NCBI GenBank assembly: GCA_958295785.1
Contig: OY282377.1
Coordinates: forward strand, 3,254,385-3,318,384
DNA length: 64,000 nt
Source of the DNA: an uncultured Latescibacterota bacterium
GTDB taxonomy: Bacteria > Latescibacterota > UBA2968
Direction of reading: 5' to 3'
In this document: positions 56,407 to 63,705 of the stretch, piece after piece
Layout of the letters: each line of letters begins with the position of its first letter
Position numbering within the stretch: the stretch's first letter is position 1
Notes under the pieces: generated by a model
What the model was told of the DNA's origin: nothing
The model's input: the letters and a program-made list of their open reading frames with translations, nothing else
Database searches by the model: none
Position numbers and translations under genes: made by a program

Positions 56407-57504
56407 ATGAGCGATATCCTCGCCTACATCGGCACTTATACCCGCGAGGGCGGCAAAGGCATCTACATCCACCGATACGACGCCGACACCGGCGCGCTGA
56501 CCCCTGTTGGCAGCGTTGAGAGTGAAAATCCCTCCTTTCTCGCCATTCACCCCAGTGGTCGCTTTCTCTATGCGGTCAATGAAGTGGGCGAATACAAGGG
56601 CGAGCAAGCAGGCGCGATCAGCGCGTTTGCCATCGGCGCGGACGCCACAGAACTCACCCTCATCAACCAGCAATCCACAAAAGGCACCGGCCCGTGTCAT
56701 GTCAGCATCGACGCCACGGGCCGGTACGCTGTTGTCGCAAATTACGGCGGCGGCAGCACCTGTCTGCTGCCCATTGCCGACACTGGCGCCTTGGGCGAAG
56801 CATCGGATTTTGTCCAGCACGAAGGCAGCAGCGTCAACCCACAACGGCAACAAGGCCCGCACGCCCATTCTGCCAACATCTCGCCCGACAACAAATACGT
56901 CTATGTCGCGGACCTGGGGTTGGACAAGGTGTTGATTTACCAACTCGACCTCGACCAGGGCAAACTCATCGCAAACGACCCGCCCTCTGTTTCCGTCGCG
57001 CCCGGACAAGGCCCGCGCCACTTTGCCTTTCACCCGGATGGACAATGCGCCTATCTCATCAACGAAATCGGCAATACCGTCGCGGTCTATGCCCACGACG
57101 CAGGCACTGGCGCCTTAACCCCGCGCCAATCCATCTCCACATTGCCCGACGAGTTCTCGGGCACCAGCCACACGGCGGATATTCACGTTTCCGCCGACTT
57201 TGTGTATGGGTCGAATCGCGGGCACGACAGCGTGGCGATCTTTGCCATTGACAAATCCACGGGCACCCTAACGCTGGTCGATATCCATCCCACCGGTGGA
57301 CAAACGCCCCGCAACATCGCGCTGTCTCCAGATGGCAACCACCTGATCGCAGAGAATCAGGCCAGCGGCACAATCGTTTCATTTGCCATTGACCACCAAA
57401 CCGGGAAATTGACAGCGACGGGACATGCTGTGGATGTGCCCATGCCCGTCTGCCTGAAATTTTTGCAACGATGCGGTGACTCACGCTTAAAACATGGGAG
57501 CTAA
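56407..57504 (+). CDS. YbhE-type lactonase (6-phosphogluconolactonase family)
   Basis: This 365-residue seven-bladed propeller begins ILAYIGTYTREGGKGIYIHR and has blade words such as PSFLAIHPSGRFLYAVNEVG, GPCHVSIDATGRYAVVANYG, GPHAHSANISPDNKYVYVAD and GQGPRHFAFHPDGQCAYLIN. These are typical of YbhE/Pgl lactonases, which hydrolyse 6-phosphogluconolactone or related lactones; the family also includes muconate cycloisomerase-like propellers. No signal peptide. The start is ATG 56407 behind AAGGAG. Its last codons (after LKFL) overlap the 3' end of the convergent methyltransferase by 18 bp, so the native C-terminus may have been altered when the restriction system was inserted. Confidence 0.88.
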   Translation: MSDILAYIGTYTREGGKGIYIHRYDADTGALTPVGSVESENPSFLAIHPSGRFLYAVNEVGEYKGEQAGAISAFAIGADATELTLINQQSTKGTGPCHVSIDATGRYAVVANYGGGSTCLLPIADTGALGEASDFVQHEGSSVNPQRQQGPHAHSANISPDNKYVYVADLGLDKVLIYQLDLDQGKLIANDPPSVSVAPGQGPRHFAFHPDGQCAYLINEIGNTVAVYAHDAGTGALTPRQSISTLPDEFSGTSHTADIHVSADFVYGSNRGHDSVAIFAIDKSTGTLTLVDIHPTGGQTPRNIALSPDGNHLIAENQASGTIVSFAIDHQTGKLTATGHAVDVPMPVCLKFLQRCGDSRLKHGS

Positions 57505-58641
57505 TGCTTCTCCAATTCTCTGTCCCAACAGGGGTGGAATCGCATTTCCTATTTGTTTGACGATTTGCGAGCGCGATCCCGCAAACGCGAAATCGTCATC
57601 AAAGGATTGTAAACGCGCGCCCTCTCTGGGTGTCAGTGAGCGGTTCTGCACGGGATGGATACATCGGTTAGATGCGGGATGAACAAAATTGACCGTTAAT
57701 GTCACGGCAGGCTCATCCGCATCCAATCTCGAATAACAAGAACTAAACCCGCTGTTGATCAACTGTTTGGGAATAGAATGGATATTTTTTCCTGCATGGC
57801 GTATGATCTCGAGCATTTTTTTAGAATGACAGGTCGCTTCATGTAGCGTGAGGTGCTCCATTGCATTTCTGCGCGCACGTTGATATTCTGTTCTTGGTTC
57901 GTTGACATACACTGTGGCTTTGTCACCCGATTCAATAGGAGGCAAATCATCAATCGCATCTCTCACGGTTATGGCGGGTTTTAATTTTGACTTTGTAAAA
58001 AGATCTGGCTCCTTTGGCAAAAGCATTCTAAATTTCTTTTTATGCCCAATAGTCGTCCCTTGATATTCATAATCCGGCACGGGAAATTTGAGACGCGCTC
58101 CTTTGACGACACCTATAAAGATCAATCTCTCGCGCTTCTGAGGAACGCCAAAATGAGCGGCATTGAGAATCTTCCAGTCGCACTCATACCCAATTTTGTA
58201 AAAGCACGCCTCCATCATTTCTATTGTAGAACCCGCTTTATGCGTTGCCAACCCCACGACATTTTCCAATACAAAGGCTTTGGGCCGAAAAAAGTTGACA
58301 AATGAGGCGTATTCCTCAAAGAGTGAATTTCTCGGGTCGTCTTCTCGGCATGAGCGAAAGGGCCTAATAGAAGAAAAACCTTGGCAAGGAGGGCCTCCAA
58401 TGATCAAGTCCAATTTCCCTCGCTGAATTTTCAACATGTCGGAAACTGCCGTTTTTCTTAAATTTCGCATATCTTTGCATATCCCAAAGGCTTCCGGGTG
58501 ATTGAGGCAAAAAGTTTCAACGGCAATAGGCAATAAATCTACTCCCAAAACAGTTTGATATTGCATGGCGGAAACTTTTTGAAAACCTTTTGAAAAACCA
58601 CCTGTGCCACAAAACAGATCGAAAATTTTGACTCGCTCCAT
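57487..58641 (-). CDS. DNA (cytosine-5) methyltransferase of a restriction-modification system
   Basis: I chose ATG 58641 (or the ATG just before it, 58644) because GGAGG lies at the right distance; longer open frame upstream has no start with a site. The 384-residue enzyme has all C5-methyltransferase motifs: KIFDLFCGTGGFSKGF (I), IIGGPPCQGFSSIRP with the catalytic Cys (IV), FVLENVVGLATH (VI), PQKRERLIFIG (VIII), RSLTPREGARLQSF (IX) and IVKQIGNAIPPLL (X). The target-recognition region lies between VIII and IX. It methylates C5 of cytosine at the site cut by its partner nuclease. It is divergent from the nuclease gene with about 20 bp between start codons. Codon use is more AT-rich than the neighbours, suggesting transfer. 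Confidence 0.95.
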   Translation of the reverse strand: MERVKIFDLFCGTGGFSKGFQKVSAMQYQTVLGVDLLPIAVETFCLNHPEAFGICKDMRNLRKTAVSDMLKIQRGKLDLIIGGPPCQGFSSIRPFRSCREDDPRNSLFEEYASFVNFFRPKAFVLENVVGLATHKAGSTIEMMEACFYKIGYECDWKILNAAHFGVPQKRERLIFIGVVKGARLKFPVPDYEYQGTTIGHKKKFRMLLPKEPDLFTKSKLKPAITVRDAIDDLPPIESGDKATVYVNEPRTEYQRARRNAMEHLTLHEATCHSKKMLEIIRHAGKNIHSIPKQLINSGFSSCYSRLDADEPAVTLTVNFVHPASNRCIHPVQNRSLTPREGARLQSFDDDFAFAGSRSQIVKQIGNAIPPLLGQRIGEALAPMF

Positions 58642-58662
58642 CATTGACCTCCAAAAAAAGTT

Positions 58663-59562
58663 GTGCAATGCGGTAGAGACTTCGGAAATTTTCTCGCTTT
58701 GATAAAAGCGATTCGCGCAGAACAGAATTTGACGCTTGAGCAATTAGCCGAACAAGCGGGGATACACAGAACAATGGTCGGGCTATTGGAACGACGCGAA
58801 CGCGTACCCACAATTCAAGTTGCCAATCAAATTGCCCACGCCCTGGGATTTTCACTATCAGATCTGGTGCAAATGGCCGAATGGATTTCATCAGAGGAAA
58901 ATTCTAAATTTTCTCTTTCATTCCTAAAGCCGCGAAAGCCCAGCAGGTTAAATATCAGAAATGAACACATATTGCTCGAGTTAATGGGTATTGAAGGTAG
59001 CGTGCTGCTTGAGGCCATTGAGTACGCCTACGGAACATTGGATACGATTGATCGAAAATTACTGACATCTCAATCTCCAGTCGTTGCAGAATTGGCCGAA
59101 CTTGCAAATTTTTCATCTATGCTGGGAAATCTGATCGGTAGTGGCATTGCAAAATCATCAGGGGGACTATACGAGCGCAACCGTCCTCATACATACCCCG
59201 ATTTACTACCTCTCAAAGCACCGGCCGTAGATGTAGAATTGAAAATGGCTTTAAAAAATAACAAGCCCAAAGGGCATCTCCCGAAGGCAGGCGTGTACAT
59301 AACCTTCAGATATGTTTTGGGAGATCGCGAGGGCAATTTTATTCGAGGAAGGGAAAACAGAGGAAATACAGCTTGGATATGGGAAATCAAACTGGGTTAT
59401 GTTGACGAGGATGATTTCTCTATCAGCAATACAACCGGAGATTCTGGTAAAACCGCAGCAATCAAGACAGATGTTCACAACAAAATGCCTTTGGTTTACT
59501 ATGACCCCCAATTTCTGCCTTATTCCCCTAGGAAAGATGCCACATATCCAGGCTTTAATTAA
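58663..59562 (+). CDS. HTH-fused PD-(D/E)XK restriction endonuclease-like protein
   Basis: Frame start is GTG 58663; no strong ribosome site precedes it. Residues 10-68 form an XRE-type helix-turn-helix (IKAIRAEQNLTLEQLAEQAG, then IHRTMVGLLERRERVPTIQV), as in controller (C) proteins of restriction systems. After a linker, residues 130-299 form a second domain. HTYPDLLPLKAPAVDVELKM contains P-D...E-L-K, a plausible PD-(D/E)XK active site, followed by ITFRYVLGDREGNFIRGREN and TAWIWEIKLGYVDEDDFSIS. Its position beside a lone C5-methyltransferase makes it the likely restriction enzyme, with the HTH available for autoregulation. I could not match the nuclease domain to a named family. A terminator follows at 59610. 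Confidence 0.7.
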   Translation: MQCGRDFGNFLALIKAIRAEQNLTLEQLAEQAGIHRTMVGLLERRERVPTIQVANQIAHALGFSLSDLVQMAEWISSEENSKFSLSFLKPRKPSRLNIRNEHILLELMGIEGSVLLEAIEYAYGTLDTIDRKLLTSQSPVVAELAELANFSSMLGNLIGSGIAKSSGGLYERNRPHTYPDLLPLKAPAVDVELKMALKNNKPKGHLPKAGVYITFRYVLGDREGNFIRGRENRGNTAWIWEIKLGYVDEDDFSISNTTGDSGKTAAIKTDVHNKMPLVYYDPQFLPYSPRKDATYPGFN

Positions 59563-59609
59563 AAGAGAAATCACAATTGTCAACATAAATTGGGGACCTA
59601 AAAATCATC

Positions 59610-59645
59610 ACGGGTTGCCATTGGGCGATGGCAACCCGTTGTGTT
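59610..59645. terminator. Rho-independent terminator
   Basis: ACGGGTTGCCAT and ATGGCAACCCGT pair perfectly (59610-59621 and 59628-59639); T-rich sequence follows. It lies between the convergent nuclease and DUF6785 genes. Confidence 0.85.
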
Positions 59646-59664
59646 TTGGTTTCATTTTTTTTCC

Positions 59665-61611
59665 TTACCACGAATGCACCATGTGGCCGTTGCCGGGGAA
59701 ATAGATGTGATCTACGAGGGTAGAAAGGCCAACGCCGAGGGTGTAGCCGATTAAAAGGCCCACAAAAAAGGGTTGCAAATTGCGGTAGAGGCGAATGCCT
59801 CCGATACGCAACACAATGGACTTGAACGCCCAGACGAGGAAGACGGTGAAAGCAGTAACTCTGACCGGATAGACATAGCCCACGGTGAACCCGACCGGAT
59901 GCAGGGGCCACCGCGCAAACCGCAGGCGCATCAGGCTCAAAAACAACGTGCCGAGCGCGCCCGCGGCCAAAAAACGCCATTCGATATTGCCAAAAAAGGG
60001 CGGCTCGGACGCCCACGAGACCACGCGGTCAAACATGCGCTGGCTGTACCCGCCGAAAACGAAGACATGGCGGATGTTGGCCGCGCCGGTCGCGCCATAA
60101 CACAGGTTGAGCGTGTAGCCAATTGAAACGACAAAGCCGACGATAAACGCGAGGATGAGGGCCGCGACCATGCGATTGCGCGGCCATTGAAAGGTATCGT
60201 GGATTTTGGCTATGTGCGCGAGCGATGGAAAGGCGTATTCCCGGTGGCTCTCCACGCTGTTGGCCGCCAAGGCCATGCCCACATGGTCCGGGGTTTGCAC
60301 GCTTGTGCCGAGCGCGGCAGCAGCGAGTTCTTGCGTCCGCAACGGGGTTTCCACATACACGAGGCCGGTTTCCGCGACGATTTTAGCCAAGCCAATAAAG
60401 TAGATAAACAACAGGCCGAGTTGCATGGCAATGCCCAGCAGCGAAATGCCCAGCGCGTACATCCACGCACTCGCGTAAATGAGGGCGATGATCAAACAGA
60501 TAACAGCCGTGCGGTAAGACAGGAGTTCGGATCGGTCTTCTGCATCGGCGCGCCATGCAGCGCGGACAACGGCCCCGATGTGTTGCCGCGCGATAAAGAG
60601 GCCGAACAGCGCGAATGCCGCGAACCCGCCTACCTGCTGGAGCAACAAGCCGCTGCCAAAATCCTTGCCCACCGCGACGCCAAACCGGTTCAAGACCCCA
60701 ATTTCAATTAGCGACAACACATGGAACAACCAGATAGAGAGCAGGACCTCGAGGTTGGTGAGATACCCAAAAGCCGCCATGACAAAGTTGAATTTGATTT
60801 GGAGCGGCGGAAAATCGTGCCCAAATGAGATGGTGGTGCGGTGGGTGGGGCCAATGGGGAGAATGGGGAGGTTGTGCCAGAACAGGGGCAGGATGTTCCA
60901 ACTCAAAATGAATAAGGCGATGCCAAATCCGGTCCAGAACAATCTGTTTTTGAGGAAGCCGACCTGCCCCGATGCCGTGTCTTGAATCATGAGGATGGGC
61001 AACTGCGCCAGGGGAAACGCGAGGCGTTCGTATTCCACCCATTGCTTGCGTAAAATGACGGCGATGCACAAACACGCGATAAACAGCGCGAAAAAAAATG
61101 TGAACCACCAAAAGAGCGGCCCCGCCCAGACGTGCCACGGGATGGAAAGATGCGCGGGCAAGCCCTCCCACAGGTGGGTGATGTCGCCCGTGCGATTGCT
61201 CGGCACGGCCCATGGTAGAATGTGTTCGTGGGTAAATTCCGCCCATCGGTTTTCCGGCGTGGCTTTGTAATACGGGCTGGCGAGCACCGCAATCAGACGC
61301 CCGGCGACATTTTTGGTGGGAAATACGCTGCCGATAAAGCCCATGCACAGGATGAGCCCCAATTCGCCGGGGCGAAGCATCCAATCGCGCTGAATTTTTT
61401 TGAGGAGCGGATTGATCAGGAAGATGAGGAGGAACGGCAGCCACAGCGACATGGGCATGTGGCCTAGCGAAACGCGGGAGGCGCGCAGGCGATAGGTCGT
61501 GTCCGTGGCGAACCAACATATCGCAACGGTGAGGATCAAACCGATGACAATGGCGCGCGTGGTGATGTGCCGGGCGGGTTCACTTTGCGGCGCGGGGGCG
61601 GATGCGTTCAT
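59665..61611 (-). CDS. DUF6785/DUF6784-type polytopic membrane protein 2
   Basis: This 648-residue paralogue of the protein at 26249-28240 shares LGHMPMSLWLPFLLIFLINP, RPGELGLILCMGFIGS, SPYYKATPENRWAEFTHEHI, HVWAGPLFWWFTFFFALFIA and RKQWVEYERLAFP, and the same order of 12-14 membrane segments. ATG 61611 was chosen because it precedes the conserved region by only 14 residues and follows GAAAGA; the frame is open for 26 codons upstream. Two diverged copies 33 kb apart suggest different substrates or conditions rather than a recent duplication. Function is unproven; a transport role is inferred from topology only. Confidence 0.8.
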   Translation of the reverse strand: MNASAPAPQSEPARHITTRAIVIGLILTVAICWFATDTTYRLRASRVSLGHMPMSLWLPFLLIFLINPLLKKIQRDWMLRPGELGLILCMGFIGSVFPTKNVAGRLIAVLASPYYKATPENRWAEFTHEHILPWAVPSNRTGDITHLWEGLPAHLSIPWHVWAGPLFWWFTFFFALFIACLCIAVILRKQWVEYERLAFPLAQLPILMIQDTASGQVGFLKNRLFWTGFGIALFILSWNILPLFWHNLPILPIGPTHRTTISFGHDFPPLQIKFNFVMAAFGYLTNLEVLLSIWLFHVLSLIEIGVLNRFGVAVGKDFGSGLLLQQVGGFAAFALFGLFIARQHIGAVVRAAWRADAEDRSELLSYRTAVICLIIALIYASAWMYALGISLLGIAMQLGLLFIYFIGLAKIVAETGLVYVETPLRTQELAAAALGTSVQTPDHVGMALAANSVESHREYAFPSLAHIAKIHDTFQWPRNRMVAALILAFIVGFVVSIGYTLNLCYGATGAANIRHVFVFGGYSQRMFDRVVSWASEPPFFGNIEWRFLAAGALGTLFLSLMRLRFARWPLHPVGFTVGYVYPVRVTAFTVFLVWAFKSIVLRIGGIRLYRNLQPFFVGLLIGYTLGVGLSTLVDHIYFPGNGHMVHSW

Positions 61612-62614: not shown

Positions 62615-63705
62615 TAGGACTTACGCAATTTCCATTGGAATATGAGGTGCTTTGAGTTGTTGTCTCAAGAAGTCAGCCACCCCCCGGTATTTGACTTGAT
62701 AAATGGTTTGTCCTGTTTGATAGGCCACCTGCGCGAGTCGAATCCAAACGAACATCGCACACCCACTATGATTTCGTACAATGCGTGCCAACCGGCATTG
62801 ACACTTTTCAAGCCCGGTCACCTGTTTGACTTCGCGGTGAAATTGCTCAATTTTCCATCTTTGGTGACACACCTGTTGTACCCCTGAAGAATCGTTTTGA
62901 GCATGGTCGTTAGTTACGACATACGCCGTGCGTCTATCAGCAGACGCCACCCGGAATAATTTCACTTTGTGGTCTTTGGGGAACCCTCTGATTTTAATTA
63001 GCTTGCCTTGTTTGCGTTGCGCTTGAGTCCAAGTTAAGCTATCTACGCGCTGGTAGGGGGTTGTGCCTGCCGAATCGTCCACGCGCCGGTTCGTCTTGAG
63101 GGGACAAGAATAGGTTTTTTGCATCTGCTCTCTGTGTCGCATGACCGTTTTGGTCGCATACCAACTGTCCATCAAGACCCCGGTAAAAGGAAGGCCCTTC
63201 TGATAGACCCACGCAGAGAGCATGTCCTTGAGAGGATCCAATTTGGTTTTGCCATCGCCTTGCGGGTCATAAATCCGATAATCAATCAGCCAGAACCGAT
63301 CCTGTTGCGGATTGACATAGACACATGTGACCCCCCCGATGCCATTGATGACGCCTTGGGCGTTGCCGCTATATTGACGACGCACTCACGCGATCTTGCG
63401 CGCGTGGCGCTTGTCTAAAACCGGGTCATCAAAGATCACATAGCCTTCAGGCGTCAGCGCGATGTGGTCTTTGACATGTTCCCACACCAAGCGGGGGGGA
63501 TACGCTCACCGGCGAGATAGCGGTTGATCATATCATGACTGAACCCTTCGCTATGGTCGGCGAAAGGGGTCAGGGTATAGTTGAGGGGACTGCTAAGCAG
63601 ATACTGACAGTAATCCAAACGCGTCGGGTGGCGCATTGACACCTCCTCAAAGTGATAAATTTTACGGAATTGCACCCTTTGTTAACTCAGCATGCGTAAG
63701 TCCTA
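62615..63705 (-). mobile_element. IS701-like insertion sequence with broken transposase
   Basis: The 1091-bp element runs from TAGGACTTACGCA (62615) to TGCGTAAGTCCTA (ending 63705), perfect inverted repeats, and is flanked by a 5-bp duplication ATCTT. A single transposase gene fills it on the minus strand. Confidence 0.88.
62621..63636 (-). pseudogene. IS701/IS4-like DDE transposase, frameshifted and with a nonsense codon
   Basis: ATG 63636 behind GAGGAGG opens MRHPTRLDYCQYLLSSPLNY and runs to RYLAGERIPP. A run of seven Gs (63493-63499, plus strand) causes a shift into the frame VWEHVKDHIALTPEGYVIFD, then DPVLDKRHARKIA and an in-frame TGA, after which RRQYSGNAQGVINGIGGVTC continues to the end. 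The catalytic blocks GVLMDSWYATKTVM (Asp) and RWKIEQFHREVKQVTGLEKC with ARIVRNH (Glu) are present. The W-K-I-E-x-[FY]-H-R-x-x-K-Q pattern is typical of IS701 and related IS4-group enzymes. With two disruptions the copy is inactive unless the G-run is an error. Confidence 0.85.

What the first reader, a model, noticed from the sequence alone, without database searches (positions are those of the whole stretch)
57487..59562. Compact restriction-modification system whose nuclease carries its own HTH domain
A C5-methyltransferase and an XRE-HTH plus PD-(D/E)XK protein are divergent with about 20 bp between start codons. There is no separate controller gene; the N-terminal HTH of the putative nuclease is placed to do that job, and both promoters must lie inside the opposite coding sequence or overlap fully. 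The nuclease domain does not match a family I can name. AT-richer DNA and an 18-bp overlap with the lactonase gene suggest recent arrival.
Basis: partly seen in the sequence, partly recalled or inferred. Interest (0 to 1): 0.65.

Follow-up and report, generated by a model that had tools for sequence, protein, structure and literature searches.

The report
Restriction enzyme fused to its regulator
This is a restriction-modification gene pair in which the DNA-cutting enzyme carries its own gene-control domain; relatives keep a conserved control site on the methyltransferase promoter, but this copy has lost that site, so the tight packing that looked like clever design is probably a deletion scar.

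Summary
The pair is real. A C5-cytosine methyltransferase (57487-58644, -) is divergent from an XRE-HTH plus PD-(D/E)XK protein (58663-59562, +). The pair recurs as a unit in a second Latescibacterota genome, a Psychrobacter plasmid and a phage contig. It works like a known kind, the C-REase ('CR') fusion of Type II RM systems (CR.NsoJS138I), but with a different nuclease domain, absent from Pfam/NCBIfam, with a confident EcoRV/NaeI-like model. In four relatives the methyltransferase promoter TTGACN-N17-TATAGT/TATTGT has its -10 in a conserved 19-bp element (exact in three: GAGACTATAGTCTCCACCG) containing the C-protein site GAC-TATA-GTC; DNA around it is unrelated. A blind search for 18 bp of it in viral contigs recovered the same methyltransferase/HTH pair. 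So the nuclease probably represses the methyltransferase. In the window about 108 bp here are missing: the -35, half the -10 and operator, and the nuclease gene's leader, ATG and first codons. The '20-bp' spacing is therefore probably a scar and this copy probably silenced or rewired, although both ORFs are intact. The island occupies a sulfatase slot; the 18-bp lactonase overlap is a by-product. Verdict: new variant of a known kind.

The parts
57487..58644 (-). C5-cytosine DNA methyltransferase, 385 aa (start ATG 58644; the longer TTG ORF to 58743 runs over the nuclease gene's start)
   Evidence: Pfam PF00145 E=3.7e-65, TIGR00675; 86% / 62% / 66% identical to the partners in L003, L004, L029; GPPCQG, ENV and QKRER motifs present
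58663..59562 (+). CR-type fusion: XRE/C-protein HTH (residues about 13-70), linker, PD-(D/E)XK nuclease domain (about 95-299); GTG start, no Shine-Dalgarno sequence
   Evidence: HTH_3, PADLOC Control_protein, relatives 87% and 55%
58945..59559 (+). Nuclease domain with catalytic candidates P179-D180, E192, K194 and H205
   Evidence: Invariant in 14 sequences; AlphaFold model pLDDT 85.4, pTM 0.85; nearest solved folds EcoRV, NaeI, DpnI, NhoI, PvuII
58669..58681 (-). Remnant of the operator / methyltransferase promoter (CGGTAGAGACT on + strand, approximate coordinates); the outer half of the palindrome, half of the -10 and the -35 are missing
   Evidence: Alignment with L003 and L004; intact GAGACTATAGTCTC absent from the window even with 2 mismatches and from the whole genome with 1 mismatch
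58681..58682 (.). Deletion junction: about 108 bp present in L003 is missing here
   Evidence: Pairwise alignment; L004, an outgroup, shares the L003 arrangement
57466..59656 (.). Incoming island: occupies the place of the sulfatase gene that sits between the lactonase and the DUF6785 gene in relatives
   Evidence: Homology to five relatives stops at 57465 and resumes at 59657-59665; sulfatase in the slot in G034 and G030

Best explanation
A Type II RM system of the C-REase (CR) fusion kind. Shown: the divergent pair recurs on different replicons; the nuclease domain has an EcoRV-like PD-(D/E)XK fold model; in relatives the methyltransferase promoter TTGACN-N17-TATAGT/TATTGT has its -10 inside a conserved C-box-type element (GAC-TATA-GTC, exact in three loci). 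Inferred: on entering a cell the strong methyltransferase promoter fires first; as the CR protein accumulates, its HTH dimer binds the palindrome on the -10 and turns the methyltransferase down, and may also activate the divergent nuclease promoter. The nuclease is thus its own controller. In this genome the region carrying the -35, half of the -10 and operator, and the leader, start codon and first codons of the nuclease gene is missing, so this copy is most likely unregulated and poorly expressed or silent (shown: the missing DNA relative to L003/L004; inferred: the loss of expression).
For: Pair as a unit in L003, L004 and phage contig L031. MTase promoter and operator in four loci: 17-19 of 19 operator positions identical while surrounding DNA is at chance identity, 18-32%. 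An 18-mer operator search returned three viral contigs, two of which carry the same MTase divergent from this HTH. HTH closest to C proteins in profile and fold. The operator matches the published C.Esp1396I optimum GAC-TATA-GTC (PMC3758141). The same nuclease family in Acidiphilium (L024) has a separate HTH gene overlapping the nuclease gene by 4 bp, with tandem C-box-like sites upstream. Nuclease motif and fold. Deletion; promoter absent in window. Precedent: CR.NsoJS138I acts as both REase and C protein (PMC3850674).
Against: No activity or binding is measured. The CR promoter is not securely located in any relative. dN/dS against L003 is low for both genes (0.098 and 0.089), so no relaxed selection is visible; the deletion is recent or the genes are still used. 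The deletion rests on one assembly and could not be checked against reads. A GTG in frame still allows an intact HTH.
Confidence: 0.78

Rival explanations
1. The window copy is a working, compact system: both genes are transcribed from promoters inside the opposite gene or from read-through, and the GTG-started nuclease controls them at the shortened region.
For: Both ORFs are intact and dN/dS is about 0.1; an in-frame GTG leaves the HTH complete; the MTase keeps a good Shine-Dalgarno sequence.
Against: The promoter and operator conserved in four relatives are destroyed; no promoter-like site serves either gene in 58500-58900, the only match lying inside the nuclease gene; no Shine-Dalgarno sequence before the GTG.
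Confidence: 0.2
2. The 108-bp loss is an assembly error; the organism carries the normal 100-120 bp control region.
For: Only one assembly of this species is available here; the missing stretch includes a palindrome.
Against: The genome is a single 5.66-Mb contig at 99.3% completeness; the reading frame of the nuclease stays open across the junction.
Confidence: 0.12
3. The HTH is not a transcription controller but helps the nuclease recognise or tether to DNA.
For: HTH domains can serve substrate binding; no binding data exist.
Against: The HTH is C-protein-like; it is tied to a C-box-type operator on the MTase promoter; in phages L029/L030 operator, MTase and HTH persist without the nuclease domain; in other members the HTH is separate or fused to the MTase; L032 and L009-type nucleases lack it.
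Confidence: 0.07

Closest known systems
C-REase fusions of the PvuII family (CR.NsoJS138I, CR.Mru1279I; PMC3850674)
   Same: One polypeptide with an N-terminal C-protein HTH and C-terminal REase; divergent MTase; C-box operators between the genes
   Different: Nuclease domain is not recognisably PvuII by sequence (fold match weak, E=0.11); MTase is C5; the only conserved operator found lies on the MTase -10; the window copy has lost it
C-protein-controlled Type II RM systems (Esp1396I, PvuII, BclI, Kpn2I)
   Same: HTH most similar to C.BclI, C.Esp1396I and C.Kpn2I among RM regulators; operator GAC-TATA-GTC identical to the C.Esp1396I optimum
   Different: No free C protein; controller and nuclease are one chain
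RM systems whose methyltransferase carries an N-terminal HTH repressor (autoregulating MTases reviewed in PMC3874152; L032 and L009 are such arrangements of this nuclease family)
   Same: An enzyme of the pair doubles as regulator of the shared promoter region
   Different: Here the regulator domain sits on the nuclease, not on the MTase
BbvCI/Bpu10I heterodimeric systems
   Same: The wider nuclease family includes a two-nuclease, two-C5-MTase locus (Peribacillus L011)
   Different: No sequence match to BbvCI chains; the window has one nuclease and one MTase

Membership tests
C-REase (CR) fusion RM system | N-terminal HTH of C-protein type | tested here: met
   HTH_3 and PADLOC Control_protein hits; Foldseek to C.BclI, C.Esp1396I
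C-REase (CR) fusion RM system | C-terminal restriction-endonuclease domain | tested here: met
   Invariant PD-x11-E-x-K, EcoRV/NaeI-like model; cleavage itself not testable here
C-REase (CR) fusion RM system | Adjacent cognate methyltransferase | tested here: met
   Divergent C5 MTase in the window, L003, L004, L031; that the two share a target site was not testable
C-REase (CR) fusion RM system | C-box operator between the genes (relatives) | tested here: met
   L003, L004, L029, L030, and a degenerate form in L031
C-REase (CR) fusion RM system | C-box operator between the genes (window copy) | tested here: not met
   Only a half-site remains; the window copy is filed as a damaged member, not as an intact one
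C-REase (CR) fusion RM system | Transcriptional activation/repression by the fusion | not testable with these tools
   Needs reporter or binding assays
PvuII-type CR fusions | REase domain orthologous to R.PvuII | tested here: not met
   No PvuII match by phmmer/hmmsearch; weak fold match only, E=0.11
Type II C5 methyltransferase | C5 motifs and family profile | tested here: met
   PF00145, TIGR00675 above cut-off
BbvCI/Bpu10I nuclease family | Sequence relationship to BbvCI subunits | tested here: not met
   No hit to BbvCI chains in the PDB

The most novel reading that the evidence does not exclude
In this family the restriction enzyme is itself the direct repressor of its own antidote: a single CR site on the MTase -10, with no separate controller, ties methyltransferase supply to nuclease level. 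The HTH has moved between nuclease, methyltransferase and a free protein within one nuclease family, and phages have kept the HTH and methyltransferase while discarding the nuclease.
Probability: 0.45. Interest if true: 0.55.

Novelty: new variant of a known kind. Interest (0 to 1): 0.43.

Why it matters
C-REase fusions have been described for PvuII relatives; here the same solution appears with an unrelated-looking nuclease domain and a C5 methyltransferase, with an operator conserved between a Latescibacterota chromosome, a Psychrobacter plasmid and phages. One nuclease family shows the regulator fused to the nuclease, fused to the methyltransferase, or free, which makes the question of what each wiring does for establishment in a new host directly testable. 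The window itself shows how such a system may die by losing its shared control region.

Tried and rejected
Pfam, NCBIfam and PHROGs for the nuclease domain: nothing. PDB by sequence, single and profile: only HTH hits or noise. BbvCI/Bpu10I membership was considered because of the two-nuclease, two-MTase Peribacillus locus; no sequence support. Full-length AlphaFold model with four sequences was too weak for the nuclease (pLDDT 56.8), so it was repeated on the domain with 14 sequences. Viral-contig scans with the first nuclease queries found no nuclease-domain relative; the operator search and the MTase search did. Site specificity could not be assigned: no characterised methyltransferase close enough was identified. 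The CR promoter could not be placed consistently (L004 has a candidate directly beyond the palindrome, L003 a different one). One third viral hit of the operator 18-mer (L028) lies by unrelated genes and is taken as chance.

Full report
What is there. The window (chromosome of a Latescibacterota-type genome; nearest named relative JAGWBW010000069.1) carries a C5 methyltransferase at 57487-58644 on the minus strand and, divergent from it, a 299-aa protein at 58663-59562 with an XRE-type HTH and a C-terminal domain without a Pfam or NCBIfam family. The start codons are 18 bp apart, GC is 43-45% against 52-60% around, and the methyltransferase end overlaps the lactonase ORF by 18 bp.

The pair is a unit. 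The nuclease gene has an 88%-identical relative in a second Latescibacterota genome (L003 = G030), in different surroundings, a 62% relative (nuclease domain) on Psychrobacter plasmid pA15BP4 (L004), and a 55% relative (nuclease domain) on a phage contig (L031); each is divergent from an orthologous C5 methyltransferase. Among 64 genomes of the phylum only the window genome and G030 carry close copies.

The nuclease domain. P179, D180, E192, K194 and H205 are invariant across 14 sequences, some under 20% identical to the window protein: the PD-(D/E)XK signature. A model of the domain built on that alignment has mean pLDDT 85.4 and pTM 0.85. Its 28 best PDB matches are all Type II restriction enzymes (EcoRV, NaeI, DpnI, NhoI, PvuII, entry 3ndh), with HincII a little lower, though none reaches E<0.001. 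The wider family sits next to C5 methyltransferases (Streptococcus phage L005, Peribacillus L011, E. coli p12579_5 L022) or N4/N6 methyltransferases (Klebsiella L023, Acidiphilium L024, Rhizobium L026, several phages).

Where the HTH sits. In the window, L003, L004 and L031 it is fused to the nuclease. In phage contig L032 it is fused to the C5 methyltransferase and the nuclease has none. In L008-L010 it is fused to an N4/N6 methyltransferase beside a nuclease of the same family. In Acidiphilium it is a separate gene overlapping the nuclease gene by 4 bp, preceded by tandem C-box-like repeats ACTTATAGTC and GACTCATAGTC, the classic C-R layout from which a fusion can form (as argued for PvuII relatives in PMC3850674).

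The operator. L003, L004 and L029 share 19 identical bases, GAGACTATAGTCTCCACCG (methyltransferase orientation); L031 has 17 of 19. Anchored on it, the rest of the intergenic DNA is at chance identity, 18-32%. In all four it overlaps the methyltransferase promoter: TTGAC(A/A/T/G), exactly 17 bp, TATAGT (TATTGT in L031), with the -10 inside the palindrome. The core GAC-TATA-GTC is the published optimal site of C.Esp1396I (PMC3758141). As an independent test, an exact 18-mer of the element was searched in all viral contigs: three hits, two of them (L029, L030, identical in this region) between the same methyltransferase and this HTH. In those phages the nuclease domain is gone after residue about 66. 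The inference is that CR binding occludes the methyltransferase -10.

The window copy is broken at this point. Against L003 about 108 bp are missing, beginning inside the palindrome and ending about nine codons into the nuclease gene. Because L004, a much more distant relative, has the L003 layout, this is a loss in the window lineage. What remains at the promoter position is TTTTAT-N17-CGAAGT; no intact palindrome exists in the window or genome; the nuclease ORF must use a GTG without Shine-Dalgarno sequence. Both ORFs are intact with dN/dS near 0.1 against L003, so the loss is either recent or tolerated. Silencing is inferred, not shown, and an assembly error is not excluded.

How it got here. 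In five congeners checked, homology to the window stops at 57465 and resumes at 59657-59665; in G034 and G030 the slot was read and holds a sulfatase. G030 has the sulfatase here and the RM pair elsewhere. The lactonase in relatives ends at ...LKFLA*; here the incoming DNA extends it by a few residues into the methyltransferase end, which explains the 18-bp overlap.

Novelty. C-REase fusions active in both roles are known (PMC3850674). This is a new variant: different nuclease domain, C5 partner, operator on the methyltransferase -10, and regulator swapping within one nuclease family. Whether REBASE already lists these genes could not be checked.

Noticed in passing
L029:1424-3102 and L030:1442-3120 (phage contigs): Phages keep the orthologous C5 methyltransferase, the operator and the HTH part of the CR gene, but the nuclease domain is gone after about residue 66: possible self-protection against this RM system.
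   Followed up: partly
L032:3710-5790 (phage contig): Same nuclease family with the HTH fused to the C5 methyltransferase instead of the nuclease, genes convergent, vsr gene next door; L031 also has a vsr gene beside its CR gene.
   Followed up: partly
L008:1396-2847: In one relative genome the nuclease domain reads in frame behind a PhyH-like dioxygenase (483-aa ORF); in L009 the same two parts are separate ORFs.
   Followed up: no
L011:2395-6457 (Peribacillus plasmid pSHB26): Locus with two nucleases of this wider family and two C5 methyltransferases, suggesting a heterodimeric enzyme for an asymmetric site.
   Followed up: no
L005:6007-6580 (Streptococcus phage phi-SsuHCJ31_comEC): Relative of the nuclease domain without HTH, split by a frameshift, directly upstream of a second intact nuclease of the wider family.
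   Followed up: no
window 59665-61608: The DUF6785/DUF6784 membrane protein beside the island belongs to a very large paralogous family: 33-57 matches in each of 11 congeneric genomes.
   Followed up: no
own genome G000:C1:5348186-5350201 (L002, L013): A second C5 methyltransferase (36% identical) with a small separate HTH (C-protein-like) gene nearby; the genome holds several further C5-methyltransferase-like matches.
   Followed up: no
window 62621-63385: ORF resembling a DDE transposase, about 3 kb from the RM island (impression from the sequence only, not searched).
   Followed up: no
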